From assembly GCA_963565915.1 (NCBI GenBank), contig OY751486.1, forward strand, positions 1,798,001-1,862,000: a DNA stretch of 64,000 nucleotides, given 5' to 3'. Below the pieces are notes generated by a model, which was given only the letters and a program-made list of their open reading frames with translations, was not told where the DNA came from and searched no databases. Positions 65 to 62,900 of the stretch are shown here, piece by piece; within the stretch, counting starts at the first letter, position 1; the number at the start of each line of letters is the position of its first letter. Both the position numbers and the translations under genes were made by a program. Source of the stretch: Entoloma clypeatum. Lineage: Eukaryota > Basidiomycota > Agaricomycetes > Agaricales > Entolomataceae.

Positions 65-1058
65 ATGTCGGGAAACAAATTCCAAAAAGAATTGGAGGCG
101 CTGCAGGCCAAACTCGCGGAGGTGGAGGCTAAGAAGCGAGTGGCGGAGGAGGAGGCTGCCAAGAAGGCTGAGGAGGAGTGGAGAGCGGAGGAAGAGAGGG
201 CTGCGGAGGCGGCGCGGGTGGCGGAGGAGATGCGGGTAGCGGAGGAGATGCGGGTAGCAGAGGAGACATGTCAGGCGTCGGAGCTGGTGGCTCAGAAGAG
301 GGCCGATGAAGTGGCCGCTGCGCAAGGCGCGTTGAGCAAGGGGTCGGGGGTGCCGCAGGCGGAGAAGAAGAAGAGGGCGACGAAGAAGAGGAAGGGGGAG
401 GAGGTGTCGGCGATGGTCGGAGAGGGGTCGGGAGTCGGGGTCGGGGTCAGCGCCTGCAATAGGTGCATTGTGTAGGGCGTCGAGTGCGAACACAATGAGT
501 GAGTTCTTCTTTGGTTCGTCTTTTTCTGTTTTAACCTTTTGTTTTAGGAATAAGTCGTCCTGCAAGGGTTGTGTCAAAGACAAGAAGAAGTGCGAGGTCG
601 GAGCGTCGGAGGGAAAGTCGGAGGTGAAGGAGGTGAGGAAAACGGTGAAGGTGAATAAGGGGAAGAAAAAGGCGTCGGAGATGCCGTTGGAGAGTGGGTC
701 GGAGGACACTGTCTTGAGTGTCCTCAAGATGATTTTGGCGGAGACCAGGCAGGTGAGGCAACTGCTAACAGCAGTTGAAGACTCGGTGAACACTGAGTAC
801 CGACAAAAGTTGCCGGAGGTGTCGGAGGAGGAGACAGAGTCAGAGATGGATACAAGGGAGGAGATGCATGAATTAAGGCTGGAGAAGAGGATTGCGAGGA
901 GAATAAGGAAGGACATAGTGAATAGGAAGAGGTTGGAGTTGCCGGAGCTGTCGGACGATTCCGACATGTCGATTTCGGAGCCGTCGGAGAAGGCGGAGGA
1001 GGAGGAGGAGGAGGACAAGGAGGAGGGTCTGTCAAACAAGAAACAATGTACTAAGTAG
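65..1058 (+). pseudogene. Antisense coiled-coil/zinc-cluster gene of Gy-A, broken copy
   Basis: This is a host-like gene on the strand opposite to Gy-A pol, ending 28 bp from the pol stop. The ATG at 65 opens an Ala/Glu/Lys-rich coiled coil (residues ~5-80), then basic residues, then the zinc cluster. GTGAGT at 499 and TTTTAG ending at 547 bound a 49-bp intron that joins the two halves in frame. The Cys spacing is C-x2-C-x6-C-x8-C-x2-C-x6-C, as in Gal4-type Zn2Cys6 domains. An in-frame TAG inside the first half (between CNRCIV and GVEC) breaks the protein. The tail after ~950 is acidic. The intact sister is at 35129-35999 with the intron at the same place. DNA binding is inferred from the motif only. 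A fused ORF calling program would see two shorter ORFs here. Confidence 0.75.
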
Positions 1059-25544: not shown

Positions 25545-26450
25545 TAGGGAATAGCACGGGTATGGGTACCCCGCGCGGGTCACAGGTACGGGTACGGGTC
25601 GTGATTTCGCAACCCGCAACCCGTGACGGTACCCGTCACACGTCACGCTCTGACGTGGCTGCGCACCACCACTGCCGTCTCCACGGCCGCTCCCTCCTGT
25701 CTCCGACGGCTTCAAGTCGAGCCCAACAGCATCCAGTCGAGACCAATGGCCGCTCCCCGTCTCCGACGGCTTCCATTCGAGCCCAACGGCCGTCTCTCGC
25801 CGCCAACGGCCGTCTCTTGCCCCAACGGCCGCCCAACGCCCTCCAGTCGCGTCCAACGGCCACCTCTCGCCCCCAACGCCCCCCAACGGCCCCCACATGC
25901 GCCCAACGGCCGTCTATCGCCACCAACGGCCCCCTCTTGCCGCCAACGCCCTCCACTCACGCCCAACGGCCCCCACATGCGCCCAACGGCCCCCACACGT
26001 GCCCAACGGCCGACTCTTGCGCCCAACGGCCACGACGCGCCCCCTCTCGCTCCCAACCGCCGCCACTCGCTCCCAATGCCCTCGAACAGCCGCCGCTCGC
26101 CACCAACGGGCACCTCTCGCGCCCAACGGCCGCCACTCACCGCCAATGCCCGTGACTCGCGCCCAACGGCCGTCTCTCGGGGAGGGGCTGGGAGGATGGG
26201 GCTGGGGACAACAAGTCCCCAGCAGGGTGTAGTATGACGCGTGCATGCCGCACGCGTCTCGTAGTTTTTTTTTTTGTAGTTTAATTACATTTTTTTTGTC
26301 TACTGCGAACACCCGCGCGGGAACCCGAACCCGTCGCTACCCGCGCGTACCCGCGCTCCATCTACCCGCGGGTCGACGGGTTGCTACCCGTGCGGGTACG
26401 GGTACGGGTTGGCATCGCGGTACCCGCGGGAGTACCCGTGCCATTGCCTA
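25545..26450. mobile_element. 906-bp non-autonomous hAT-type element
   Basis: Perfect 8-bp target duplication CATAGGAA at 25537-25544 and 26451-26458; the empty site is seen in the other Gy-C LTR. Termini: TAGGGAATAGCACGGGTA at left, and the reverse of the right end reads TAGGCAATGGCACGGGTA. Eight-base duplication and YAGGS-type ends are hAT hallmarks. Subterminal GGGTACGGGTACGGG repeats occur at both ends. No transposase; the interior is a minisatellite plus a T-rich stretch (~26265-26300). Confidence 0.85.
25660..26185. repeat. GC-rich minisatellite, CGCCCAACGGCC-type unit
   Basis: About 20-24 bp units based on CTCGCGCCCAACGGCCGC in tandem. It is the complement of the unit at 2655-3065. 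Long ORFs on both strands here are repeat artefacts. Confidence 0.9.
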
Positions 26451-28326: not shown

Positions 28327-28352
28327 CTGTACAAAGCACAAGTGGCAGAGCT

Positions 28353-28723
28353 TGTTATGCTTAACAAACCGTTCCAAGGTTCGGGCAGAGTATGCAGGAA
28401 AGTGGAAAGGCGAAGAGCAATGTGATTGCTAAATCTAAGGAATCTACTACAGTACAAGAGGTTTATATAGGTACTGACTATAGGCGGTAGCGGATGAGTC
28501 AGTACTGCGGAAGGCAGTGCACATGAGTAAGGCGACTGCGGAAAGCGAGTCAGTGCGGGAGCGAAGTATACTAAAGGGGCTGACGAAGTAAAGGTAGTGA
28601 GTCAGACTGGGAATCGAAGGTTGCGAAAATAGACATTAGACATAGTAAGCTCGTAAGAGGGCACCGAGCCGGGCCGATAAGTAAAAGTGATGACATCGTC
28701 CGCATACCGCAGAGTCCATAACA
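28353..28723 (-). repeat. Gy-D 3' LTR
   Basis: TGTTATGCTTAACAAACC to GAGTCCATAACA; TATA-like GTTTATATAGG at ~28460. Confidence 0.93.
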
Positions 28724-28757
28724 TGTTCCCCTCTTCAAGCTCTGTGTCCTCACAGAG

Positions 28758-29129
28758 TCATTGTCCCCATCCCTCGTTGTTGCCGGGATCGGACCAGTTC
28801 GGACTCTCCTTGAGGCTCCAATCATATATCAACTCCTCATTGATGGCAACGGCGAGTTCGAGGCCTTTGATAGCCAGCCGAATGCATCAATTTTCGATCA
28901 CGAGGGTGCTGGTGTAATTTCCGAGAATTTGTTTTTCCTCGGGACTAGGAGCGACGGGGAGGTTGGACAACGAGTGAAGCCGGATATGCATTTGTCGATG
29001 AAGGAGGTCAGCAAGGGAGGTTTCGAGGGCATGGATTTGGTCTCTCATGGAGAGTGCTTTGTTCATGAGGGCAGCAATGGCGGGGTTGATGTCGGTGGTG
29101 GTGGTGGAGGTAACGGTGGTGGTAGACAT
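28758..29129 (-). pseudogene. Gy-D small downstream ORF
   Basis: After the pol stop (29262) an ATG at 29129 in strong context (GCCGCCATGTC) opens MSTTTVTSTTTTDINPAIAA, then a coiled coil (ALSMRDQIHALETSLADLLH). A TGA at 28887-28889 splits it; the frame continues with AIKGLELAVAINEELIYDWS to a stop at 28758, ~35 bp before the 3' LTR. The read-through product would be ~123 residues. It is in the sense direction, unlike the antisense gene of Gy-E, and has no recognised homologue. Conservation of the frame past the TGA suggests that stop is a recent lesion. Confidence 0.55.
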
Positions 29130-29261
29130 GGCGGCGAGGATGGTTGAGAGATAAAAGAAGAATGGGGAGGCTATATTGGGCAGGGAAAGGACTAGAGCGG
29201 GGAACTCGGTGTGTGGTTGACTGATGAGGTCGATACTGTTATGGATTTCGAACACTGTCTT

Positions 29262-32200
29262 TTATCGTGGGCGAGACGGGTTCTGCCGGTGGAAATCACG
29301 GATCAAATCTTGAGCGTTCTGAACATTAGCTCGAGGTTCCCATGTGTTCTCTTCTGGGCAATATCCTTCCCACTGGACGAGGTACTGGATCTTTCCACGG
29401 AACTTTCGAGAGTCTAGGATTGTGGCCACATGATACTCTTCTCGTCCTCCAATGATGATCGGATCAGGGGCTGGTTTCTTCTTCTGGATGGCGTACTTCG
29501 GGGTTTCGTAAGGTGACAACAGGGTCTCGTTGAACACAGGGTGAATCATTTTCCAAGTCTTTGGAAGATCAGGAAGGTACGCGCTAGCCCCTTTCTTCTC
29601 TAGGACCTTGAATGGTCCATGTCGGAGTGCGTCAAGTTTCTTCGAGGGACGGTTAGTCCTGATGTTAGTCCCTTCCAGCCACACCTTGTCTCCGATGCGG
29701 TAGTTCCAAGACAGACTCCATCGTGTGTCAACTGTCTTCTTCATCTGATCCTGTGCCTGTTTCAGCGCTGCATTGGCTTCTTCTCATGCTTGTTTGAGTT
29801 TTTCCAAGAAGCTGTTGGCAGCCGGGTTGGTGTCTTCCAACACAAGTTCTCCCTTCCAAGGATGCAAGCCATAGTTGAGGTAGAATGGTGTGTGCTTCGT
29901 CCCCTGATGTTCTTTATCATTGTACTGGAATTCAGCAATTGCGATCCACTCAGCCCAATCATCTTGTAGATGGTTGACAAAGTTTCGTAAGAACACTTCT
30001 GTTTCCTGATGTGATCGTTTGGCCTGTCCATCAGTCTGTGGATGGTATGCGATGGACAGATTCCTTTTGATCCCTAACATGCGGCAAAGTATCTCCATGA
30101 ACTTCGCAGCAAACTGTGGTCCCCTGTCACTGATGATCTTCTTGGGGATCCCATGAAGCTTCCATATCTGATCCTGATAGATCTTGGCTAATCCTTCAGC
30201 CGATAATTCCACGGTTGTCGGAATGAGATGGAGCATCTTCAAATGTCTATCCATGATGACCAGAATCGCATTCTTTCCCTCGGACTCTGGTATTGGTCCC
30301 ACAACGTCAATCCCTATGTCTTCCCATGAATGACTTGGTGCTGCATGGGGGTGTAGCGGAGCATGTCATTTCTGTCTGTTGATCTTGTTGCATTGACAGG
30401 TGTCGCAACCTTTACGTACTTCTTCACATCATGCAAGATGGTAGGCCACCAGTAGGTGCGAGTGAGGAGTTCGTGTGTTCGATACTGTCCTGGATGTCCA
30501 GCCACTGGTGCATCGTGTGACTCAAACATCAGTTCTTGACGCAGTTGTGGGTCCGGTGGAACATAGACTCATTCGCCTGCATATGTGATGCCGTTTTCCT
30601 GTTGATACCAATGAGGATTCTTCTTTAGACCCTGGGCTACTTCTGTCTCCATGCGGTTTGAACCCTTGATGCGTGCGATCCATGGATTTTTGATGGTTGT
30701 GACATTTTCAATCTTGATGGAATCAGATGTTTCACCCCCTTCAAAGAATTGTTCCTCCATGAATATCTCCATTTGTACCACATCTTCTGATTCCAATCAT
30801 TTCAAGAATAGTCCCTCCTTGAGCATTGGTCACTGTCTTGTGGTTCAAGTTCCGTTTCATACCAGGGTAAGCGCAACAGGATGTCCGCTTTTGCATTTGT
30901 CTTGCCAGGCACATGCCGTAATTCGAAGTCATAGTCTTGTAACTTCATCTTCCAGTGCCTTTGTCATTGATTTAGGTCCTGAGGACGGCGGAAATACTCC
31001 AGGTTCTTGTGATCAGTTAAGATCTCAAAGTGTTCCCTGGCTTCAAGTAGATAGTGTCTCCAATCTTTCAGTGCTTCCATGACTGCCAAGAGTTCTTTGT
31101 CGTATATCTCGTAATTTTGTTCAGCCGCGGACATGGTCCGTGACAAGAACGCAATAGGATGCCATTTGTCGTCCTGTTTTTGAGAGAGTACAGCCCCAAT
31201 TGCATAGCCCGATGCATCGGTTTCGACCCTGAACTGTCCATCTGGTTTTGGTAATGCCAAGACTGGTGCCGATGTGATCGCCTGTATGAGACCTTCAAAT
31301 GCCTTTTGTTCCGTTGGTCCCCAAGTAAACGCAGTGCCGCCTGTGAGCGCAGTAACTGGTTTCGCGATGTTTGAGTATCCTTCAATGAAGTGCCAATAGA
31401 AGTTAGCAAACCCAAGGAACTTCTGGACTTCCTTCTTTGATGTGGGTGCTTGCCAGTTTCGGATTGTGTCCACCTTCTCGGTTTCCATCTCGACACGTCC
31501 TTCACCAACAACATATCCCAATATGGGGCATTTTGTTACTTCCCAGAAACACTTCTTTTCCTTCAGGAACAAGTCATTGTCCGATAGGATCTGCAGAATT
31601 TCTTCGGTGTTTCGCGCGAGTTCTTCCTTGGTTTTACCAATAACCACAATGTCATCCATGTAGATCACGCAGATGCGTCGGCGGATCTGGTCCTGGAATA
31701 GACTAGCCATCATTCGAGAGAACTTTCCTGGGGAGTTGCAAAGGCCAAAAAACATGACCAATGGTTCAAACAATCCTCGACTGGTGAGGAAGGCAGCCTT
31801 CCATTCATCGCCTTCCTTAATCCGGACATTGTTGTAACCCCACATGATGTCCATCTTATTGAAGTAGACTGCATCTTTCAGCACGTCCAAGAGATCAGAG
31901 ATGCGCGGGAGTGGGAACTTGTCTTTGACCGTAAATTTGTTGACCATGCGGTAATCTTGTACCAATCGTTTGGAACCATCCTTCTTGTTGATGAAGAAGC
32001 AAGGGGAAGCATAAGGGGATTTGGACGGGCAGATCTTTCCAGTTGCTAGACCTTCATCAATGAATGCGTCCAATTCCTCTTGTTCCTTTTGTGTCATGGG
32101 ATATGTATTTCCCCCTAGTTCCTTTGGTGCATCCGGTGTAAGTTCAATACCATGGTCCCATTCCCTTTCCTTCAGGATTTTATCAAAGTTCTCCTTCTCG

Positions 32201-32900
32201 AAGAGGTGAGTAAAATGATCAACATATGAGGGTCGTTTGGTTGTGGGAGGTGGTGTGGGAGCGACAGCTTCCAATATAGGGTCTCCAGGCTTCCATTTCT
32301 GATCCGACTTCTTGGGTGCATCTTTGTCGCGCACCTCAACCATGCGAACCCGGTGTTTGCGACCATCAAGGTTAACCCTGAAATCTGAATGTTTGGTTCG
32401 GCATGTTGTTGGGCACCGGTTGAACGTTACAGCGCCGGTTGTCCAATTGATCGTAGGGTTGTGGTGTACCAACCAGTCATGTCCCAAGAGCATGTCTGTT
32501 CTCCCAATGTCCAGTACCATTGCTTCCATGGTTTCCTGATGTGTTCCCAGATCCAGCTTGACTTCGGCAAGTTGGTTCGCTTTTTGTTGTCGATTTGGTG
32601 ATCCATCCGCATTTAGAATTGCTATGGGCGGTATTCCTCGCGTGGGGAGGTTCTGTTCGCGTACTATTCTGGGATGGATGCATGTGCGTTCACATCTGCT
32701 ATCAACCTCAGGTCGAATGACCTTTGGTCCTCGTCGTGTTTTGAGCTGAGCTAACAGCCTGATCTCTCATCGTTTCAGAGGTTTGTCTCCCTTCACAATC
32801 TTAGTCGACGCAGCGGCTCGCTTGGCGGGGATGACATAGGTTCTATTGTCTGCAGTCATACAAGGCAAGCAAGTCCGTTTAATAGATAAGGGTCGCGACT
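29262..32900 (-). pseudogene. Gy-D pol: protease to chromodomain
   Basis: Protease-RT linker with DMLLGHDWLVHHNPTINW, RT with VIYMDDIVVIGKTKEEL (YMDD), RNase H (RVETDASGYAIGAVLSQ, EILTDHKNLEYF), integrase with IISDRGPQFAAKFMEIL and YHPQTDGQAKRSHQETE, and chromodomain EYHVATILDSRKFRG / YLVQWEGYCPEENTWEP, stop 29262. TGA codons at 30964 and 29784 and frame changes near 30800 and 30330 inactivate it. In the HHCC region one Cys pair is scrambled by a frame change. Confidence 0.9.
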
Positions 32901-32909
32901 TAGTGTCGT

Positions 32910-33776
32910 TTAATCGGACCCTTCGGGAAAATCCTTCTCGTCGGCTTCTAAGATTGTGGTTTCATCATTCTCGGCATCTTCCTCAGACACCTTCCTAACC
33001 CTTCCAGAGTTCTTCTTTGGCTTGCGGCAGTTGCACGCAATATGGCCTTCTTGGTCGCAGTTGAAACACTTGCGACCATCTTTCTTCTTTGGAGTGCTGC
33101 AGTCTTTAGCAAGGTGACCAAAGCGTTGACAGTTGTAGCAACGGGCCACTCCTGCTTTGTCGATCTCCATGGCCTTGCCTTGACCACCATAAGTGGTGCC
33201 TGATCCGGTGCGCATGTCGCCGCCACCTCGGATGACCAGTGCATGTCCCTCCATCTGTCGTCCCTTGTTTCGGATCTCCTTTGCGTACTCAGAGTACGTC
33301 TTATCCTCACTTGCCACTTGTTCAGAGATTCTGCGGTTAACTTTCTTTTCCAGGATGTATTTCCCAGTTTCCTCACCAAGGTTTGACAGCTTCAAGAGCT
33401 CTTCAAATTCGTCCAAGAATTCGTCAACGGTGCGTTTTTCCTGTCTCAGGACTTTGAGTCTCGCTTTGGCAGCGACTGACTTGTTGGCGACAGAGAATCA
33501 TGTTGCAATATCCTCTGAGAATCCTAGCCAGGTGATGTTCTCATTGTCGACGGCAAGAGTGTCTAACTTGTTACTGGCCCAGTGCTTGCCGGACCCTTCC
33601 ATCATGTGGGATAGCACCGCAAGAATCTTCTGATCGTCTGTTAGGCTCTTTTGGAACCTGATGTATAGTTTGGTGGCTTTCCACCACTCGTCAAAGGTGT
33701 GTCTGTCCTTGAACATCCCAGGATCCTTGATGATCTTGGATGTATCCATCGTTTGTACTGCTGGAGCTTCTGCCAT
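32910..33776 (-). pseudogene. Gy-D gag with two CCHC knuckles
   Basis: ATG at 33776 (MAEAPAVQTMDTSKIIKDPG). Capsid-like region KDRHTFDEWWKATKLYIRFQ, one TGA at 33498, then EFLDEFEELLKLSNLGEETG and two zinc knuckles CYNCQRFGHLAKDC and CFNCDQEGHIACNC. Acidic end. Only the single TGA stops an otherwise intact ~288-residue protein. Confidence 0.85.
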
Positions 33777-34296
33777 GTCTAGAGTCTGCGGAGAAGGAGA
33801 GGGGTCGGGTTGTTGGGATGAAGATGGGGTTCGGGATACAGGTAAGGGTTGAAAATGAGTCCCTGTTCTAGGCGTCTGTTCGATATCTGACTGCGCGGAG
33901 TCAAAAGCAAATTCGTCAGGGGACTCGTCGGCGGAATCAGTGGCAAAACGTTCGGGGTATTTCCTCTGTAGATCTCTAAGGAATCTCTGTTCCTGCGCGT
34001 CTGTCGGTTGTGAGAAGGGGTCAAGTCTCTCGTTTCGTGCCCAACGACCGTACTCGGTCTGTTGTTTGGTGGTTGTAAAGTGGGCGTAGATCTGTTGCTT
34101 TGAGTATGACGTGATAATGTGGCTCTGGGACGTCTCGATGTGAGCGTCCTAATCAATCTTCTGATAACGGTTGTCTGGACACCGATAAACTCTCTGATCT
34201 CTGTGATCCGACCTGTCTGAGGTCCTTCTTGAACGCAAAAGCTTTCGAGTTCCTTCTGTCAGGCGTTGTAACGCGTGATCTGGTGTTGTCGAGCAA

Positions 34297-35009
34297 TGTT
34301 AAGTAGGTGAAACGTCGGAGCTTCGTCGGAGTCTGTCGGAGGTCGGACGTAAGACTGAGCCCGGAGCGGAACTCCGGAAATGCGGAGGAACGACGAAGGG
34401 GAGGGACGTGGCTTCAACGTATGTGTTGCGCCGCCGTTTGTTGGATAAGGTGTCCCAATTTCAAGAGGTCGGAGGAGGGGTCGGAGGTGCGGAGGTCCTC
34501 GGAGAGATCTCGGTGAGAGACACGTTGACGTGGAAATGGTCGGACGACGTCGGAGTTGTGACTCGGACACAGTACTGAGCTCGTCGAAGGGTAACGATGG
34601 AGGAAGAGCAGTAGATGATGATGTCGTCGGCGTATTGTACCACGGCGAGAATCTCTGGCATGAAACGAGAGTAGAGGAGTGAACTTTGTTGATATTCAAA
34701 CTGAGGAACTACAGGTATGGTACAAGCTTAAATACCTAGATGTGATTACTTTACGGAGATGGTCGGAGTAGGTCCGGAGTTGTGGCGCAAGTTGCCAGCG
34801 ACTGTAACAAACATCGGAGATGTCGGTCAACGGACCATGCGGAAAAGGCGATGCATAAGTAAACGGGAATATGAATATGAAATGCATAAAGGCATGGAGT
34901 TATGAATATGAAATGTACGATGGCAACGTGTGGAGATGCGGAGGTAACGGATGTCCGGAATGTCGGAGGACTATCGGAGTGGATCGGAGATTCAGAGACG
35001 GATATAACA
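34297..35009 (-). repeat. Gy-E 3' LTR
   Basis: 713 bp. Has one copy of the 31-bp unit GGCATGGAGTTATGAATATG... where the 5' LTR has two. Contains 18 CGGAG on the plus strand and one CTCCG. Confidence 0.95.
34937..35003 (+). promoter_or_regulatory. Cluster of seven direct CGG triplets upstream of the antisense gene
   Basis: Direct CGG triplets spaced 5-11 bp apart (period 8-14), e.g. CGGATGTCCGGAATGTCGG, lie at the LTR edge 126-192 bp before the antisense ATG. Zn2Cys6 proteins commonly bind CGG triplets in pairs. A role in the promoter of the antisense gene is inference. Confidence 0.35.
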
Positions 35010-35128
35010 GTATTCCCCTCTTAGGTCTGACACCCATGGAAGACCGCGAGAAAATAAACAAGGTCATGTGGTCTCGGTTATTTAACGGAGATGAGCGGCT
35101 TCAAGGGTTTCTTCCAGTTACCACCAAC

Positions 35129-35999
35129 ATGCCCCAAGGCTCGAGCACGCAGCCCACCCGATCCAACGCCAACCTAGACGACTCCGAAGAGGAGCTCCTG
35201 CGCCGTCTGGCGCAGATATGCAAGGAGAAAGAGGAGGCGGAGGCAAGGAAGAAGGCGGAGGCCAAGAGGAGGGCGAGGGAGGCAGAGGCGAAGGAAAAGG
35301 CAGAGGCAGATGCAAAGGCGGAGGCGGAGAAAATTGCGGAGGTGGAGAAGAAGAGGGCAAAAAAGGCTGGGAAGCAGAGGGCGGAGAGCGGAGCGGAGGA
35401 GTCGGAGGTCCGGGGGGAGGCGTGTCAGGCCTGTGCGCAGGCGAAGGTGGAATGCAAGTGGGCGTTGTGAGTACCCACTTCTCCATTCTCTTTTTCTTAC
35501 TGACAATCTCCTTAGGCAGGGGAAGGGCACCGCATGCCAGCGGTGCAAGGACAGCAAACGGGTATGCCTGAAGGCCGGCGAGACGCGGGCGAAGCGGAAA
35601 CGGGGAAAAACGGAGGAGGCCGTCGCGGAGGTTGCGGGCCCGAGCGGGGCGAAAGGCTGCTGCGGCGCAGGGGTCGCGGAGGAGCTCCGGGAGGCTCTGG
35701 AGGAGAGAGAGGAGTGGTCGGCGAGGGTCGGTTGGGCGCTGCTCCGGCAGCTGCAAATTTTAAACAACCACCTCGCCTACCGGAACTTCTTGCTGGAGGC
35801 GGCGGCTCCGGAGTCGGAGGATGATGGAGGGGAGGCGAAAAGTGCGGAAGAGGACGAGGAAGAGGACGAGGAGAAGGACGAGGGGTTGGATGAGGGGGAG
35901 CTTGCGGAACTGCAAGCGGAGAAACAGGAGGTGGAGGGAGAAACGGAGGATGAGTCGGAGGATGACGGTCCGCCGGCCAAGAAGGCCAAAACCCAGTAG
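35129..35999 (+). CDS. Antisense coiled-coil/Zn2Cys6-like protein carried by Gy-E
   Basis: Spliced CDS 35129-35466 and 35516-35999 (822 bp, 273 aa, no stop). Intron 49 bp, GTGAGT...CTTAG, inside the zinc cluster, as in the Gy-A copy. Residues ~15-95: Ala/Glu/Lys coiled coil. ~98-135: CQACAQAKVEC, then CQRCKDSKRVC (C-x2-C-x6-C twice, ten residues apart), a binuclear zinc-cluster pattern. ~135-150: basic stretch (RAKRKRGK), a possible nuclear signal. ~165-200: second helical part. ~205-273: Glu/Asp-rich, ending KKAKTQ. Located 58 bp from the pol stop on the other strand and 120 bp from the LTR. The intron shows that it is transcribed from the plus strand, not the retroelement RNA. Function unknown; a transcription regulator is the obvious reading. 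Confidence 0.8.
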
Positions 36000-36057
36000 C
36001 CCCTCCCCCTCTAGTTTCTTTTTATTATTTTTTGCAATATGAGAGTCTTGCGTGGTT

Positions 36058-39000
36058 CTATAGGCGTGATAAGGGGCCCGGTTTCTCCGGATACGCGGAG
36101 TGGAAGTCCGCGACTAAGTCCGTCGCGTGTTCGAGTTCCGTGGCGGGTAGCCAGGACTGTTCCTCATCAGTTCCTTCATAGCCTAGCCAACGGACTAGGT
36201 AGAGCAGTTTGCAAGAACGTCGCTGATCCAGTTTGGTGTCAAGGATTTCGGCGATTTCGTATTCCAGTTCTCCTTCAACGTCGATCGGAGGAGGCGGAGT
36301 TACTGTCCGGTTCGGAATGTCATTTGGAACAGATGGCTCTAGCATGGAGATGTGGAATACGGGGTGAACACCGCGGATGGTGTCCAGAAGTCGGAGGGTA
36401 TAAGAGTGTGTACCATTCCTGGCAAGGATGTCAAAGGGGCCAAGGTACTTTTCAGACAGCTTTTTGGAGGGTCGCGTAGTGCGGAAAAACTTGGCCTTCA
36501 CAAAGGCTTGCTGTCCTACTTCGAGCGGAGGAGGCGGAGCACGCCGGAGATCGGCGGGGCCTTGATAACGTCGTTGAGCTTCTAGGATTGTAGATTTGAG
36601 CTCTTGGTGGAGCTCGTCCAGGTCTACGACGAATTGTCGGGCACGGGCGGATGCGAGGTCGCGCTCCGGATGGACGGAGAGGTTCGGATGATAACCTTTA
36701 TTGGCGAAGAAGGGCGAGATCCCGGTCGTAGCACTCGGAGCATTGTTGTACGCGAACTCCGCAAGCGGAAGTAGTTCGGACCAGTTGTCCTGTTGATAGT
36801 TACAGAAAATGCGGAGGTACTGTTCCAAGGTTTGGTTGGTACGTTCGGTTTGACCGTCGCCTTCAGGATGGTAGCCAGAGGTGAAGTGCAGAGTCATGTT
36901 GAGGGCTTTTCCGAGGGAGCGGAAAAAGCGGGAGACAAACTCCGGGCCTCGGTTGGAGGTGACATGTTCCGGTACTCCGTGCTTGGAGAACACATGCAAG
37001 ATGAACAAGGTGGCTAGATCTTCGGAGGTGCAGTGGATCGTAGTTGGAACAAAAATGAGGATTGCGTCAAAACCACTGGAGGTCGGAAGTGTCTCGATGA
37101 AGTCCATGGATATGGAGTTCCACGGAAGGTTCGGAACTGGGAGTTGCTTCAGCATACCATAGGGCTTGTGGCGTTGAGGTTTAGAGCGCATGCAAGTGGT
37201 GCAGGATTTGCAGTACTTTTTGACAAAGTCTCGAACACCAGGCCAAGTATAATCTCGTTGAATGAGACTAACTGTCTTGTTCTGTCCGGGGTGTCCGGAG
37301 AGAATATGGTTGTGCTTGTTGCGGAGGATGCGGAGTCGGAGGTCATTGGAGTCGGGAACATAGATGCGACCACTATGACGGAGGAAACCATCGGGGTCTA
37401 CGGACCAGTGCGGTTTGGGCTCCTTGAGATGGTCGGCATAGGTTGGGTTGGATGGGAGTGAACGGAGGATGTCGGAGTGTAACTGTTCAATGTCCATTAT
37501 GACTGTGGCGCGGAGAACAGGGGTGAACAACTCCGTAGCTCGGAGAGATGCGGACAGCTGTTCTTGGGAAAAGACTGGTCGGAAGTTGCTTGGGTTTACC
37601 GACGCATAGTCGCTATTCCCCTCTTTGGGATAGACGTCCCATCGTCTAGTCAAAGAGTCCGGCTTGGTACCGAGACGTCCGGGGCGGAAGCGAATCAAGA
37701 GATTGAACTGAGAGAGGAACTCGGACCACCGGGCCTGTCGGCGGGTGAGAACCTTTGTAGTGGCGAAGTACTCCAGGTTCTTGTGGTCCGTGACAACGTC
37801 GATCGGAGCATCGGAGCCTTCAAGGTAATGTCGCCATACTTTGAATGCTTCATGGATAGCAAGTAACTCCTTGTCGTGCGTGTCGTAGTTGAGTTCCGGG
37901 GCGGTGAAGGTGCGGGAGTGGAACGCTACTGGGTGTATCTCCTCGTCGGAGGTCCGGATGGACAAAATAGCACCAAGTGCGTAGTCGGAGGCGTCCGTCT
38001 CGATGATAATAGGCCGGTCAGGAATCCAATGAGTGAGGACCGGTGCTTTGGTAAAAGCGAGTTTCAACTCGTTGAACGCACTCCGTGCGGAGTCGGAGAA
38101 ACGGAACGGGGTACCCTTCCGGGTGAGTCGGGTGAGCGGAACAACGATGTCCGAATAACCGTGAATGAAACGTCAATAGAAATTCGCGAATCCAAGGAAA
38201 GACTGTACGTCCTTCACTTTTCGAGGTTTGGGCCACTCTTGGATGGTCTTCACCTTGGTTTCGGACATGCGGAGACTGGAGGGAGAAAGGATGAAACCAA
38301 GATATTCGACTGTGTCGACAGAAAATTCGCACTTGTCGGAGCGGACGTAAAGTCCGTTCTTGCGGAGACGTCGGAGAACTTCCTTGACATCGTCGGGGTG
38401 CTTGGCGGGGTCGTTGGAGTAAATGAGAATGTCGTCGAGGTAGACCACCACTGTAACATCGAGGAGGTCACTGAAGATATCATTCACAAATCGCTGAAAA
38501 GCGGCAGGGGCGTTGGATAGTCCAAAAGGCATAACAAGCCATTCAAACGATCCGTAATGAGTGCGGAAAGCGGTTTTCCATTCATCTCCGTCGGCAATGC
38601 GGACAAGATGATATGCATGCCGGAGATCGAGAGTGGTATAAACACGCGCTTTTCCAGCAGTGGAAAGGAGGTCGGAGATGAGCGGAAGAGGGTATCGATC
38701 CTTCTTGGTAACTTTGTTCAGGCCCCGATAGTCGACGCACAGGCGGAGGGAACCGTCCTTCTTTCGGACAAAGAGGACCGGAGCACCGTGTAGAGAGCGA
38801 GAGGGGCAAATGAAACCAATGGCCAAATGTTCGTCTATGAAGTTTCGCAGGGCAGATAGTTCGGATTGTGAAATGGAGTACATAGGGCCAATAGGGGGAG
38901 TCGATCCGTCTTCTAACTCGATGCGGAGGTCATACGGACGATGCGGAGCGAGGGTGTCTGCTTTTGTCTTGCTAAAAACATCGGCAAAATCGTGATAATC

Positions 39001-39732
39001 CTCTGGGATATGGGAGAGGTCCGGAGGTTCCTCGGACATGGAAACGGATTGGGCGGAGATCGTGTGGTCGGAGAGGTGAATTCGGAAAGATTGGGCACCC
39101 GGAAGTTTGCAAGCGCGCACGAATGCGGCTGCATTTATCAATGCAATATTCGGAACAACGTCCGGAGTTGCAGCGGTTATGCCGGAGTTGGAGGTCGGAG
39201 TATCGGGAGAGGTCTGCGGAGGTAGCGGAGCTGACCTGGCAGAAGACGTCAAGGTCGGAGACTCCTTCAAGAGCTGTGGACGGAAAGTAATACTGCCCAA
39301 TACCCAGTCAATCATAGGATTGTAGCGGGTGAGCCAGTTGTATCCAAGAACCATAGAACAGGAGGAATCGAGCGGAGTCACGTAGGCTGTAATGGCCATA
39401 TATTCACCAGAGGAAAAGTATACAGGGAGATCAACTGCCTGAGTAATGACGGAGTTGGACGTTCCATCAAATAATTTAAGTTCGATCGGAGGTATGGAGG
39501 TGAAAGGGAGTTTATAGGATGAAGCGTAACGAGAGTCAATAAAACAATGAGTAGAGCCGGAGTCCACGAGGGCGGCTATCAGAGAAGAATCGGAGATAAG
39601 CGGAGATGTAAGTCGGACACGGAGGGAATTGGGATCGGAAAGAGCGGAAGCATTGAGTAGAGCGGTAGTATGGATGGGTTCAACGCAGTCCTCAGGCCGT
39701 ACAGAGTCCTGTGGACTGCCCGCTAATTTTTT
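36058..39732 (-). pseudogene. Gy-E pol polyprotein, one nonsense codon
   Basis: Entered by -1 frameshift. Protease ALVDSGSTHCFID (~39570), RT with [14 protein letters not shown] (~38430), TGA at 38173-38175 (NFY-stop-RFIHGY, relatives Arg), RNase H IIETDASDYALGAILS, tether NLEYFATTKVL, HHCC zinc motif (HNHILSGHPG ... CKSCTTCMRSK), integ­rase core SMDFIETLP. The second catalytic Asp is Asn here (VTSNRGPEF, Gy-A has VTSDRGPEF) and ten residues after FDAILI are missing. Chromodomain EYEIAEILDTKLDQRR / YLVRWLGYEGTDEEQSWLP, stop 36058. About 1225 codons; otherwise open throughout. Confidence 0.93.
39723..39732 (-). promoter_or_regulatory. -1 ribosomal frameshift site between gag and pol
   Basis: The last gag codons read ACA AAA AAT TAG. 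The heptamer A AAA AAT fits the X XXY YYZ rule, sits directly before the gag stop, and slipping back one base opens the pol frame (AAA TTA GCG GGC). I did not fold the downstream stimulator. Confidence 0.75.
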
Positions 39733-40904
39733 GTTTCGTCCGTGGTCTTGGCTTGGGCAGTGCGCGCCTTAGCCTTAGAGGCGGAGGACGAAGACTTCAG
39801 GCAATCTTTCGCGACGTGTCCAGCTTTGCCACAAAACATACAGAGGTTGTTGTCAAAACGGCGTTTGCGTTCCTCCGGAGTTAACTTTCCGTCTTTTCCG
39901 AGTTTGTCGGAGATGTCGGACTTGGGAGCGGAGGAAGGCTTCGACTGTTTGCCCTGGTTCTGTGTCTGCGGTTTGGCTTTGGAGTTTTTATCGGAGTTTG
40001 CGGAGGGGGTTTTAGCTTCGGATTTGTCGGATTTGGATGCGGATTTGTTGGAGCGGGATTTCTCGCGCTGACGTTCCCAGTGGCGAGCATCAATGGTTTG
40101 TGCTAGCTCCCTAAGTGCTGGTAACGTGCTTGGCTTTACTTGAGTCCCAAGGACATCTTTAATCCGCTCCGCCAACCTGGAGTAGTACTGGTGATGCAGG
40201 GCGGAGCTGTCCCAGTGCGTTTTGGCAGCAAGGCGTGTGAACTCGACATTATACTTGAGAATGTGTTGATTTTCGCGCATTTTGAGATTGTCCAGAGAGT
40301 CGGCAGCATCCGCAACGGGGTCAATGACCCCGAATTCTGAGCGGAGTGTGCGGAGGAACTCGGACCAATCTTCGTACCAGTCCGGGGGGTTGTCCGGGTC
40401 CGGTTCGATGATGAAATGCTCGAAATAATCGAGAGCTGTGCCTCGGAGGAAAGAGATGGCGAGAGTGATTTTGGCAGAGTCATCGTCATACTCGGAGTTG
40501 TCGCGGAAAAACAATGTGCATTGGAGGATGAACTGGTTCAGTTTCCGGGGATCGGAACCGTCGAAGGTGTCCGGATCCTTAGCCTTTTTGTGATGCTTGT
40601 GACCTTTGCTGCGTTTGAGTTCATTGGTCATTAAGACGAAAGCATCCGCAAAGGCTTGTGGGCCAAAAATATTCTGAGGAGACGGGGGTGCGGATTGTAT
40701 GGGGGAAGTGGGGATCGGAATATTATGCGGAGGTGTGATGGGCCGAAAACCCGGAGGTGTGATGGGCTGAAAACCCGGAGGTGTCGGAGTAGTCGGAGTT
40801 ATGGGGGATAGTTCTGTTAAACGTTGTTCAACATTTTGTAGAACTTGCTGCCTAGAAGTGCCAGCTTCTGCGGCTTTTGCTGTCTTGGTGTTTCGGAGTG
40901 CCAT
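39723..40904 (-). CDS. Gy-E gag
   Basis: 393 residues, intact. ATG 40 bp from the 5' LTR. Order: Pro/Thr-rich N-terminus with GFRPITPPHNIPIPTSP-type repeats (~40-80), capsid-like domain (~110-260; PDTFDGSDPRKLNQFILQCT, HHQYYSRLAERIKDVLG), Ser/Lys-rich linker (~275-335) and one CCHC knuckle CMFCGKAGHVAKDC (~360). Gag forms the particle and binds RNA. It ends in TAG within the frameshift site. Because gag is intact while pol is damaged, this copy could still supply Gag. Confidence 0.92.
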   Translation of the reverse strand: MALRNTKTAKAAEAGTSRQQVLQNVEQRLTELSPITPTTPTPPGFQPITPPGFRPITPPHNIPIPTSPIQSAPPSPQNIFGPQAFADAFVLMTNELKRSKGHKHHKKAKDPDTFDGSDPRKLNQFILQCTLFFRDNSEYDDDSAKITLAISFLRGTALDYFEHFIIEPDPDNPPDWYEDWSEFLRTLRSEFGVIDPVADAADSLDNLKMRENQHILKYNVEFTRLAAKTHWDSSALHHQYYSRLAERIKDVLGTQVKPSTLPALRELAQTIDARHWERQREKSRSNKSASKSDKSEAKTPSANSDKNSKAKPQTQNQGKQSKPSSAPKSDISDKLGKDGKLTPEERKRRFDNNLCMFCGKAGHVAKDCLKSSSSASKAKARTAQAKTTDETKN

Positions 40905-40944
40905 GACTAGCAGGAATCCAAAAACGGTTTGAGTTCGAATATAC

Positions 40945-41688
40945 TGTTAAGTAGGTGAAACGTCGGAGCTTCGTCGGAGTCCGTCGGAGGTCGGACGTAA
41001 GACTGAGCCCGGAGCGGAACTCCAGAAATGCGGAGGAACGACGAAGGGGAGGGACGTGGCTTCAACGTATGTGTTGCGCCGCCGTTTGTTGGATAAGGTG
41101 TCCCAATTTCAAGAGGTCGGAGGAGGGGTCGGAGGTGCGGAGGTCCTCGGAGAGATCTCGGTGAGAGACACGTTGACGTGGAAATGGTCGGACGACGTCG
41201 GAGTTGTGACTCGGACACAGTACTGAGCTCGTCGAAGGGTAACGATGGAGGAAGAGCAGTAGATGATGGTGTCGTCGGCATATTGTACCACGGCGAGAAT
41301 CTCTGGCATGAAACGAGAGTAGAGGAGTGAACTTTGTTGATATTCAAACTGAGGAACTACAGGTATGGTACGAGCTTAAATACCTAGATGTGATTACTTT
41401 ACGGAGATGGTCGGAGTAGGTCCGGAGTTGTGGCGCAAGTTGCCAGCGACTGTAACGAACATCGGAGATGTCGGTCAACAGACCATGCGGAAAAGGCGAT
41501 GCATAAGTAAACAGGAATATGAATATGAAATGCATAAAGGCATGGAGTTATGAATATGAAATGCACAAAGGCATGGAGTTATGAATATGAAATGTACGAT
41601 GGCAACGTGCGGAGATGCGGAGGTAACGGATGTCCGGAATGTCGGAGGACTATCGGAGTGGATCGGAGATTCGGAGACGGATATAACA
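40945..41688 (-). repeat. Gy-E 5' LTR
   Basis: 744 bp, with two tandem copies of the 31-bp unit (41530-41591) against one in the 3' LTR. Confidence 0.95.
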
Positions 41689-41964
41689 AGCAAGATGGAT
41701 GCTCTCTGCTATCTCGCCGTGGGGGCGATGCTCGTCGTTGTCTAGTTCTTCGTCAAGCACCTGCTGTAGGATGCGACGGATCTCCGATTCGATGTACTGC
41801 TGGATGAGTGTAAAATCGATACTGTCTCGAGGACTTAGCTCCTCCTGTCAGGCTTCTGGTGAGGCGAATGGGTTACTGGTGAAGTCTTCAAAGAAGTGCG
41901 ACGTCTTGACTCGTCTGGTAGTTGCTCTCTTCGCTCTGGGCGAACCTAACGAGATTTAGCAACT

Positions 41965-42336
41965 TGTTATGCTTAACAAACCATTCCAAGGTTCGGGCAG
42001 AGTATGCAGGAAAGTGGAAAGGCGAAGAGCAATGTGATTGCTAAATCTAAGGAATCTACTACAGTACAAGAGGTTTATATAGGTACTGACTATAGGCGGT
42101 AGCGGATGAGTCAGTACTGCGGAAGGCTATGTACAATAAGTAAGCTGACTGCGGAAAGCGAGTCAGCACGGGAGCGAAGTATACTAAAGGGGCTGACGAA
42201 GTAAAGGTAGTGAGTCAGACTGGGAATCGAAGGTTGCAAAAGTAGACATTAGACATAGTAAGCTTGTAAGAGGGCACCGAGCCGGGCCGATAAGTAAAAG
42301 TGATGACGTCGTCCGCATACCGCAGAGTCCGTAACA
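41965..42336 (-). repeat. Gy-D 5' LTR
   Basis: Matches 28353-28723. Sequence just inside (complement AGTTGCTAAATCTCGTTAGG) is the presumed primer site region; tRNA not identified. Confidence 0.93.
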
Positions 42337-59942: not shown

Positions 59943-62900
59943 ATGTTTGCAGACATTCAAGAAAACACTTATCTTTGTGTCTGTGAACGCTCATTTGCTC
60001 GGGAAAGTGCCCTGACCAACCACAGGAGGACATGTAAGAAGGCTAAAACAAGGTTATCCAGTGCTCTCAATAGTGCGAAAGAAGCCTGGTTGCCTTGCCG
60101 GAAAAGACCTCGCATTGGGGGCCTTGTCCCTGCTGGCGCCGACACTGGTGCAGTTGCAACCCATGCCGAGCTGGGCATTCGAACGAATTTGGAGCCTGCA
60201 ATAGAGGTGGAAGGTCTGCTCGATGTACATGTAGGATTTCATTTACTTCTGCCAGACGTTGATTCTAATGGGATGGTGCTCGTAGATGCTTTCTGCAGAA
60301 GCAGACGCGGATACGGAGAACTTGGATCTTCCTATCGCGACACGAAAACCACGAAGGGTGATAATCAGGCCTAAACGATATCAAGACAATCTTCCCGAAT
60401 CCGCGCCATCACTCCCTCCTGCCCCTGCTGCGAGCGATGGCCCACGACAGAAACTTCAGACCATTCACACTCCGCAGAACATATTTGGCTTGTCAAGGAG
60501 ATATACTAGACCTCAACTCTTGCTTCGGGATCCAGAGGCGTTGCTGCAGTTGGAGGACCTTTGCGAACCGGCTTCCTTTTTTACTCTGCGCAATCCTCCG
60601 CAGTCTGCTGTGGTCCCCTCTACAGCTCCCTCTACTGGCTCCCAGAATGTGTTCCACCCATATCCTAATAAGACTTCGATGCTTCTTGGGCATTGGTATT
60701 GGTGCGGCGGTCCGCAGAAGTCTCAGAAAAGCTTTCAAGATCTTCTCAAAATTATCGGCGCCTCCAATTTCAACCCGGCCGACATTTGTAATACTCCTTG
60801 GGCTCCCATTGACAAAATTCTTGGAGAGGGATCTGATAAGGAGGAGTGGGAGTGGGAGGATGATTGCCATTGGAAGCACTCATCTGTGACCATTAGCGTC
60901 CCATTCCAGAGCAACTGGGGTCGACCTGGTCCATTGGATTACACAGTCGACGATTTTTTCCATCGATCCATAATTGCCGTCCTCCGCGAAACTGTATCCA
61001 ACCCAGATGCTGATCAATACTTCTATTATGAACCCTTTGAGCTTTATTGGAGGTCTCAAGGTGGGAACAAAGAGGTCCGCGTGTACGGGGAGCTCTATAC
61101 ATCCCCCGAGTTTATCAGAGTCCACCAAGAGATTCAGGAAGGTCCGGGGGAAAAGGGGTGCAAGCTACCTCGGGTTGTAGCTGCTCTGATGTTCTGGTCA
61201 GATGTAACCCATCTAACTTCATTTGGTACCGCCAAGTTATGGCCATTATACATGGGATTCGGGAATGAATCCAAGTACTGACGTTGCCAACCCTCTCTTA
61301 ATCTTCTCAATCATATCGCCTACTTCCAAACGGTACGCTCGAACATCTTTTAGAGAGTCATACTTTTGGTATTCATATTCAAGTATTTAAACAGCTTCCA
61401 GATGATTTCAAGGATTTTGCTATGGAGTATGCAGGCGGAAAAGGTCCAAGGGAAGCTTTCTTCACTCATTGTCATCGTGAGCTTCTACATGGACAGTGGA
61501 AAACTATCTTGGACGATGAATTTATCAATGCCTATTATCATGGCGTTGTTATCACTTGCTCTGATGGGCTGGATCGTCGTTTTTATCCCCGCATTTTCAC
61601 ATACTCGGCCGATTATAGAGAAAAGCAAGTGCCTGCGTAAACGATCTCTTCCAACCTCTTCTGAAAACATTTCAACAGAATCATCCTTGCCACTATTCAT
61701 AATCTCGGAGCTTGTCCTTGTCCCCGATGTCTGATTCCCTTGGCCCGTGTTGACCAGCTTGGCATGGCCAAGGACCGAAAGGAACGCCAGGAACTGGTCC
61801 GTGTTGACGACATCCAGCGTGCTAATGCAATACAACTTGCGCGATCCTACATTTATGAGCGGAATGCTCCTATAACTGGTGTTGATGTCGAAACGATCCT
61901 GCAGCCAGCATCTCTAGTGCCCACTGAGGTGAGCCATTATCACAGCTTGCAGGAGTGAAGTGACCCATTCCTCTTACAGAATGCATTCTCTGCAAAGTTA
62001 CTCCCTTTCGGCTTCAATATGTTTAGTATGTTTGTTGGCGATGAATTACATGAATGGTCTCTGGGAACATGGAGAGGAACATTTGTACATCTCATTCGGA
62101 TCTTGCGGGCTGCTGATATAGGCCTTGTTCATGAACTGGACAGGCGGTGAGCTCTTTGACCTGAACATATCTCTTGCTCTTAATGATTCCCCCCCCCCCC
62201 CTCTCCTCACACCCCAGATACCGCGAAATGCCAACATTCGGATGGGATACAATTCGGCGGTTCTCAGTAAATTCGTCAGAAATGAAAAGGTTAGCAGCCC
62301 GCGACTTTGATGATCTACTCCAAGTCTGTCTAAATTTCTGGATAACTACCTGATCAGCTTTGCTAACAAGTTTTCAGTGTGCTATCCCTGTCTTTGAGCA
62401 TCTTCTACCTGAACCACAGAACACAATTATCATGGACCTTCTTTTTACAATGGCACACTGGCAAGGACTCGCCAAACTCAGACTACATACAGATTCCACA
62501 CTCGCTATTCTTGACGACGCCACATCCCAATTGGGCAAGCAGCTCCGCCGGTTCCGTGACGAGCTATGTACAGCTTTCAAGACACATGAACTTCCACGAG
62601 AAATCGAAGCCCGCAAACGCCGGAGTGCTGTGGTGGCAGAGAATGCAAAAGGAAGGACCAGGAAAGACAAGCACACAAAGAACAACAGCGCAACTGGAAA
62701 CAAAGGTGACACCCAAACCGAGAACGAAAATGGAAGGGGAAGTGGAAATCGTGATGGGGCGTGTGGCGGAAACACAAACAGCAACGAGAACAAGTTGTCT
62801 CATGATGGAAATATTGATGGAAAGAAAGATGGCAGGGCTGCGGCAGCTAAAAGTGGAAGCGGCGAGAAAGTTAAGAAGTTCAGCATGCGAACTTTCAAGC

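What the first reader, a model, noticed from the sequence alone, without database searches (positions are those of the whole stretch)
35129..35999. Retrotransposon carries a spliced antisense zinc-cluster gene
Seen directly: in two separate copies of one Gypsy family (Gy-A 65-1058, Gy-E 35129-35999) a gene lies on the opposite strand between the pol stop and the 3' LTR. Both have the same layout (coiled coil, C-x2-C-x6-C twice, acidic tail) and a 49-bp intron at the same codon phase within the zinc cluster. The intron can only be removed from plus-strand RNA, so this gene has its own transcript, antisense to the element. Known: Zn2Cys6 proteins are fungal transcription regulators. Inference: a captured host regulator used by the element, for example to control its own expression or that of its host.
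Basis: partly seen in the sequence, partly recalled or inferred. Interest (0 to 1): 0.88.

Follow-up and report, generated by a model that had tools for sequence, protein, structure and literature searches.

The report
Retrotransposon's own antisense DNA-binding regulator
Jumping genes in a fungal genome carry on their opposite strand a conserved protein gene, with a predicted intron, whose product is predicted to bind a short DNA word that stands about ten to twenty times in one orientation in each element's own control region, which would let the element recognise and regulate itself.

Summary
The gene is real and conserved. The window's Gypsy element (34297-41688, minus strand, target-site duplication AGCAA) carries a plus-strand gene at 35129-35999, between pol and the 3' LTR, with a predicted 49-bp intron. 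I read 60 copies from three related families (A, C, E). All 60 keep six cysteines spaced as in a Zn2Cys6 cluster and a phase-2 intron inside it. Intron length varies (47-64 bp in A/E) while exons stay in frame. Pooled pN/pS is 0.29-0.30. The Gy-A copy is broken by an in-frame TAG.

In one LTR per family TCGGA counts are 15:0 (E), 20:0 (A) and 10:0 (C), gene strand to other strand. The bias continues through gag-pol, in all three frames, beyond codon usage (0 of 500 shuffles). Two more distant Gypsys in the window show neither an intact gene nor the motif arrays.

Best reading: a self-encoded antisense DNA-binding protein that would bind arrays of CGG sites in its own element and control it. 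Binding, splicing and the direction of regulation are untested. A family without the gene (D) has the motif in both orientations, so the link is not exclusive. No host donor was found.

The parts
34297..41688 (-). Gypsy (Ty3) chromovirus element, family E
   Evidence: LTR pair, 5-bp duplication AGCAA at 34292-34296 and 41689-41693, LTRs 98.6% identical over 713 aligned bases, 10 of 10 differences transitions
34297..35009 (-). 3' LTR, TGTTA...TAACA; on the plus strand (gene strand) 18 CGGAG and 15 TCGGA, against 1 and 0 on the other strand
40945..41688 (-). 5' LTR; 20 CGGAG on the plus strand, 0 on the minus strand
35129..35466 (+). antisense gene, exon 1: coil-like stretch and first half of the zinc cluster
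35467..35515 (+). predicted 49-bp intron, phase 2, GTGAGT...CTTAG, branch-point-like CTGAC
35516..35999 (+). antisense gene, exon 2: second half of the cluster, acidic tail, C-terminal basic end KKAKTQ
35423..35567 (+). six-cysteine cluster CQACAQAKVECKWALQGKGTACQRCKDSKRVC, split by the intron
36058..38067 (-). pol: RNase H, integrase, SH3_Tf2-1, chromodomain
   Evidence: Pfam
38173..39567 (-). pol: protease, reverse transcriptase
   Evidence: Pfam
39723..40904 (-). gag with a CCHC knuckle (Pfam scores below the cut-offs)
   Evidence: Pfam
65..1058 (+). family A antisense gene, broken copy (in-frame TAG 473-475), intron 499-547

Best explanation
A lineage of fungal Gypsy chromoviruses (families A, C, E) carries on its antisense strand, beside the 3' LTR, a conserved gene for a zinc-cluster-like protein that likely binds the (T)CGGA(G) word arrayed in one orientation through the element's own LTRs and body, and so would act as the element's own regulator. 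Shown: position and strand, six cysteines and a phase-2 intron in 60 of 60 copies read, purifying selection, the one-strand motif arrays in all three families, and their excess in gag-pol beyond codon usage. Inferred: transcription from the plus strand of the 3' LTR region, splicing, entry into the nucleus (C-terminal basic end), dimerisation by the long N-terminal helix, and binding to CGGA. Most likely effect (inferred): the protein keeps its LTRs open and active against silencing, as VANC does for VANDAL elements; a brake like HBZ is the main alternative.
For: Conservation: 50 of 50 A/E copies, 8 of 8 C copies and 2 of 2 further copies; two of the 60 (L031, L059) have a stop inside the cluster. 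A/E introns of 47-64 bp fall in all three remainders of 3 (21, 19, 10), so only splicing keeps the frame. Pooled pN/pS 0.29 (E) and 0.30 (A); corrected dN/dS 0.17-0.45 in the pairs with pS above 0.10. Variable columns by codon position 32/25/65 (E) and 43/63/101 (A). Motif in LTRs: CGGA on the gene strand against the other strand is 25-30 against 3-5 (25 E LTRs), 10-25 against 0 (17 A), 16-23 against 0-2 (8 C). CGGAG or TCGGA is the top 5-mer in E and A, and both are among the top four in C, where AGCGG leads. In open frames of gag-pol TCCGA is 38, 32 and 20 against 19.0, 10.7 and 10.2 expected (E, A, C), 0 of 500 synonymous shuffles reach it, other strand 2, 2, 3. Aligned E and A share 15 CGGAG sites, with 33 and 20 private. 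Genome-wide, pairs of GTCGGAG 1-12 bp apart number 2452 against 793 for the reversed pattern. Two more distant Gypsys in the window: no excess of TCCGA (6 vs 4.9; 8 vs 7.9), LTRs with 1 and 0 TCGGA, no intact gene. In one E LTR, spacings of 10, 11 or 20-22 bp: 12 pairs against 2.2, p 2e-4, classes chosen after seeing the spacings. Precedents: Zn2Cys6 proteins typically read CGG triplets, and Pho7 reads an asymmetric TCG(G/C)(A/T)xxTTxAA site (PMC5559640, passages); VANC21 sits on motifs arrayed densely in one orientation (PMC5735166, section read).
Against: Family D has CGGA motifs above codon expectation, in both orientations (22 vs 10.7, other strand 16; LTR 5:2), and in the one copy checked (L057) about 14 bp separate the pol frame from the LTR, so there is no room for the gene. 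So the motif is not tied to the gene alone, and a host factor or an RNA-level cause stays possible. One control Gypsy has some excess of CTCCG (6 vs 2.9, 25 of 500 shuffles). Pfam Zn_clus is not reached (9.5 and 7.1 bits; none for E and P0121). In C the strongest LTR 5-mer is AGCGG. The ~10-bp spacing of E is not shared by A (7-9, 16, 24). CpGs in the motif decay after insertion like other CpGs. Slower change at non-CpG motif columns holds in E (p 0.0017) but not in A (p 0.40). Inside the antisense gene itself the motif is mostly one frame of Ala-Glu codons, with a smaller excess (17 vs 11.3, 21 vs 13.7). No binding or RNA data.
Confidence: 0.5

Rival explanations
1. The antisense protein is a brake: it would bind its own LTR sites to repress sense transcription or limit copy number, as HBZ represses the HTLV-1 5' LTR.
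For: Anatomy resembles HBZ: antisense, beside the 3' LTR, with an intron, transcription-factor type (PMC10186651, passages). The same motif data apply.
Against: All three families reached at least 40 scored places. A brake does not obviously explain selection for motifs throughout gag and pol.
Confidence: 0.2
2. The motif and the gene are independent: (T)CGGA(G) is selected for something else, such as binding of the sense RNA (CUCCG) by Gag, or a host DNA-binding factor, and the antisense protein acts elsewhere.
For: The strict one-strand bias would be natural for an RNA signal; family D has the motif without the gene.
Against: D has it on both strands, unlike an RNA signal. In A/C/E the CGG core matches the usual half-site of this protein class, and the array fills the LTR beside the gene. 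E spacing follows the DNA turn, A spacing does not.
Confidence: 0.25
3. The antisense RNA, not the protein, is the function: convergent transcription would make double-stranded RNA and silence or time the element.
For: The plant review raises this role for antisense transcripts of LTR elements (PMC7264820, passages).
Against: Purifying selection on the protein frame across an intron is not expected for an RNA-only role.
Confidence: 0.05

Closest known systems
Antisense additional ORFs between pol and 3' LTR (plant Grande gene23, RIRE2, Retand/TRP28; Botrytis Boty brtn)
   Same: Position and strand, presence in many or most copies; nuclear location or DNA binding shown or proposed for some (PMC7264820 and PMC11963269, passages)
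   Different: Here a chromodomain (chromovirus) lineage, a six-Cys zinc-cluster-like domain, an intron in the cluster, and a matching element-wide motif array. The brtn paper is not held; I saw only its title and a mention, so its position and domain content are unknown to me.
HTLV-1 HBZ
   Same: Antisense gene expressed from the 3' LTR, spliced form, product of transcription-factor type (PMC10186651, passages)
   Different: bZIP in a retrovirus; here zinc-cluster-like in a fungal retrotransposon, with dense candidate sites in the element; promoter and splicing not shown here
VANC proteins of Arabidopsis VANDAL transposons
   Same: Element-encoded; short motif dense, in one orientation and enriched in the family; motif number varies through tandem repeats (PMC5735166, abstract and sections 8 and 9)
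   Different: VANDAL are DNA transposons (recalled) with an unrelated protein; their motif lies mainly in non-coding regions, here it also fills gag-pol
Zn2Cys6 (Gal4-type) fungal transcription factors
   Same: Six-Cys spacing; Lys four residues after the fifth Cys in 50 of 50 A/E copies
   Different: Below the Pfam cut-off; long helical stretch N-terminal to the cluster; the recognition-like half appears to be the second one (inference)

Membership tests
Zn2Cys6 binuclear cluster (PF00172) | C-x2-C-x6-C-x5-12-C-x2-C-x6-8-C (spacing recalled) | tested here: met
   E x10, A x8, C x11 between Cys3 and Cys4; 60 of 60 copies, two of them with a stop inside the cluster
Zn2Cys6 binuclear cluster (PF00172) | score over Pfam gathering cut-off (21 bits) | tested here: not met
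   C 9.5 bits (second half only), A 7.1, E and P0121 none; so I call it Zn2Cys6-like
Zn2Cys6 binuclear cluster (PF00172) | binuclear cluster fold | tested here: inconclusive
   P0121 single-sequence model: cluster pLDDT about 68; no PDB match at E <= 0.001
Zn2Cys6 binuclear cluster (PF00172) | binds CGG sites | not testable with these tools
   only the motif arrays support it
Ty3/Gypsy chromovirus | PR-RT-RNaseH-IN order, chromodomain, LTRs, 5-bp duplication | tested here: met
   window element E
[quoted passage not shown]
   LTR end (TAACA) at position 1430 of the oriented locus in 30 of 30 E and at 1317-1343 in 20 of 20 A copies; pol side checked by similarity only for the window E and A copies, L058, L067 and L068
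Plant Retand TRP28 antisense ORF | TRP28 domain (PF04195) | tested here: not met
   no such Pfam hit up to E 10
HBZ-type | bZIP domain | tested here: not met
   no bZIP Pfam hit up to E 10
HBZ-type | antisense transcript starting in the 3' LTR, spliced | not testable with these tools
   no RNA data; GT-AG intron with branch-point-like site
VANC-type | dense same-orientation motif enriched in own family | tested here: met
   but family D also has the motif, in both orientations
VANC-type | VANC protein domains (DUF1985, DUF287) | tested here: not met
   no such Pfam hit up to E 10

The most novel reading that the evidence does not exclude
An LTR-retrotransposon lineage has written a one-orientation DNA barcode, (T)CGGA(G), across its whole length, LTRs and coding regions alike, and encodes on its antisense strand the zinc-cluster protein that reads it: a self-recognition and anti-silencing system of an LTR retrotransposon, with gene-less family D possibly exploiting it in trans.
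Probability: 0.35. Interest if true: 0.88.

Novelty: new variant of a known kind. Interest (0 to 1): 0.76.

Why it matters
Antisense accessory genes of LTR retrotransposons have been described in plants since the 1990s, and a 2020 review still calls their roles undetermined (PMC7264820, passages). Here one has a recognisable DNA-binding-type domain, strong conservation and a candidate target inside the same element. The question 'what do these genes do?' thus becomes a simple binding and reporter test. If true, LTR retrotransposons have evolved VANC- or HBZ-like self-regulation independently in fungi, and synonymous sites of gag-pol serve as a binding platform.

Tried and rejected
Chance ORF: rejected (60 of 60 copies, frame kept by splicing, pN/pS about 0.3). 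Motif as a by-product of codon usage or amino acids: rejected for A, C and E by synonymous shuffles. Motif as a general genome feature: the window outside A and E has mostly 0-3 CGGAG per kb and strand, but the motif is also raised in D, met in one of three random stretches (L052; three of the six stretches asked for did not exist). Helical spacing as a general rule: E only. Homologues elsewhere: E region 90-215 gave none of 460 candidates at E <= 0.01; the E+A profile gave one of 7988 scored, P0121 (E 1.8e-3, ENA source, 1300-bp contig), with the same layout and read straight across the place where genomic copies have the intron. No relatives of pol in viral contigs. Fold search on P0121 uninformative. 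PDB sequence search with the C protein matched only its coil. Paper searches on fungal or basidiomycete antisense Gypsy genes and zinc clusters listed none that I recognised as describing a zinc-cluster antisense gene in a retrotransposon; I judged from titles, abstract starts and term counts. Botrytis brtn is the nearest fungal case and its paper is not held. Dropped rows: dN/dS used 21 distinct E and 13 A frames. Left out: E copies L007 and L020 (broken), L026-L030 (open, but the start filter missed them) and two duplicates; A copies L031, L039, L045, L048, L049 (broken or short), L034 and L040 (start filter). LTR counts used 25 of 30 E, 17 of 20 A and 8 of 8 C; C stretches of 797 and 964 bases include extra sequence. 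One search took the longest open stretches (120 codons or more) in each region, not curated genes, and for C only L055.

Full report
WHAT IS THERE. The window is C2:1798001-1862000 of a 60.08-Mb, 20-contig genome. Among the 120 listed pol relatives the named ones include Trametes, Coprinellus, Leucocoprinus, Pisolithus and Pleurotus, so the host is likely a mushroom-type basidiomycete (inference). The element E (34297-41688, minus strand) has LTRs of 713 and 744 bp, 98.6% identical over 713 aligned bases, all 10 differences transitions, with a 5-bp duplication AGCAA. Its pol has RNase H, integrase, SH3 and chromodomain. On the other strand, between pol stop and 3' LTR, lies the gene 35129-35999 with intron 35467-35515; the spliced product is 273 aa. 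Family A (65-1058) has the same layout and intron phase, but the window copy is broken by a TAG.

CONSERVATION. Genome searches scored 40 places per family out of 152 (E), 186 (A) and 135 (C) first-look candidates, so copy numbers are lower bounds and lean towards intact copies. I read 30 E, 20 A, 8 C and 2 more (L067 E-like, L068 C-like). All 60 keep six cysteines and a phase-2 intron, though L031 and L059 have a stop inside the cluster; the intron splits the fourth codon after Cys3 in A and E and the fifth in C. Frames are open from an ATG ahead of the coil to the usual end in 28 of 30 E, 15 of 20 A (300 aa or more) and 7 of 8 C copies. A/E intron lengths run from 47 to 64 in all three remainders of 3, mostly through different poly-T lengths. 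A branch-point-like YTNAY stands near the 3' splice site in 50 of 50. Pooled pN/pS is 0.29 (21 distinct E) and 0.30 (13 A); medians of pairs with pS above 0.02 are 0.24 and 0.30, maxima 0.61 and 0.46. No pol dN/dS was computed for comparison.

AGE AND ORIGIN. Against E, integrase-region proteins of A and C are 73-79% identical, while D and the two control Gypsys are 35-38%; for the RT region A is 69%, C 57%, the others 33-43%. The antisense proteins of the families are only about 26-30% identical, but share the N-terminal coil-like stretch, the cluster and a C-terminal basic end (KKAKTQ, KKQRTK, KKQRK). So the gene likely predates the A/C/E split and evolves faster than pol. One further protein, P0121, from an ENA source, has the same plan and runs straight through the intron place. 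It may come from a spliced RNA or an intronless relative; this is not decided. The host genome holds 18 clear Zn_clus places, none at the element-gene places listed; that search cannot see a cluster split by an intron. No donor gene was found.

THE PROTEIN. The six-Cys spacing fits Zn2Cys6, but Pfam scores stay at 9.5 bits or less, hence 'Zn2Cys6-like'. In C the weak Pfam match lies on the second half, aligned to the profile's first positions. The Lys four residues after Cys5 is invariant (50 of 50 A/E copies); in Gal4 the matching position is Lys18, a DNA contact (recalled). The P0121 model is one long N-terminal helix (residues 4-106, pLDDT mostly above 90) followed by a poorly modelled cluster (about 68); the PDB search gave nothing.

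THE MOTIF. In the window, CGGAG stands mostly at 0-3 per kb and strand outside the A and E elements, and at 10-21 per kb on the plus strand across E (bins 34000-41999: 125 plus, 16 minus). One LTR per family gives TCGGA 15:0 (E), 20:0 (A), 10:0 (C), D 5:2, controls 1:0 and 0:0; across copies the bias holds in every E, A and C LTR counted. In gag-pol open frames, synonymous-codon shuffles that keep protein and codon usage give about half or less of the observed sites in E, A and C (0 of 500), in all three frames, with few on the other strand; controls show no excess of TCCGA, though one has CTCCG 6 vs 2.9 (25 of 500) (earlier run for E). Aligned E and A share 15 CGGAG sites and have 33 and 20 private ones, so sites turn over while density stays. 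Four A-family LTRs shown differ in the number of short tandem units such as TGTCGGAGG, much as VANC targets do (PMC5735166). Genome-wide, close pairs of GTCGGAG number 2452 against 793 for the reversed pattern. CpGs mutate more than other positions both inside and outside the motif (A 9.9% and 10.3% against about 1%), consistent with cytosine methylation of these elements (inference).

AGAINST. Family D, met in a random stretch (L052, extended as L057) and at motif clusters (L056), has the motif in both orientations and, in L057, no room for the gene. The motif therefore cannot be read as proof of this protein's site; D could use the A/C/E protein in trans, or a host factor could read both. 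The ~10.5-bp spacing was tested in one E LTR with classes chosen after looking, and A does not share it. Slower change of non-CpG motif positions is seen in E, not in A.

MECHANISM. The likeliest model: the plus strand of the 3' LTR region would drive a short spliced mRNA; its protein would enter the nucleus, dimerise through the coil, and coat CGGA arrays in every copy of its lineage. I favour activation or protection from silencing, because the sites cover the whole element. Repression, as for HBZ, is possible. Every step after the sequence facts is inferred.

PLACE AMONG KNOWN THINGS. Antisense accessory genes in this place are known in plants, with roles undetermined in the review I read in passages, and an antisense gene, brtn, is known in Botrytis Boty elements by title and mention only. 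A zinc-cluster-like member with a matching element-wide motif did not turn up in the searches named in Tried and rejected; subscription papers are not covered.

Noticed in passing
window 28351-42336: Element E sits inside another Gypsy whose LTRs are at 28351-28723 and 41963-42336: a nested insertion.
   Followed up: partly
L052, L056, L057 (family D): A Gypsy family (LTR TGTAAGGGCG..., 444 bp in L057) with CGGA motifs in both orientations beyond codon expectation and, in L057, no antisense gene.
   Followed up: partly
A and E LTRs (17 and 25 copies): CpG positions differ about 4 to 15 times more often than other positions; the window E LTR pair differs by transitions only (10 of 10).
   Followed up: partly
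L001, L002, L026-L030 (E copies): The antisense frame is open upstream into the LTR, with extra ATGs (357-364 aa in all).
   Followed up: no
P0121 (ENA source, 1300-bp contig): A relative that runs uninterrupted over the intron place; possibly a spliced RNA.
   Followed up: partly
window 25702-26181: About 20-bp tandem repeats of the CCCAACGGCC type.
   Followed up: no
window 60286-61281: ORF with a Plavaka transposase match.
   Followed up: no
window 41490-41688: The 5' LTR of E carries a 31-bp duplication that its 3' LTR lacks.
   Followed up: no
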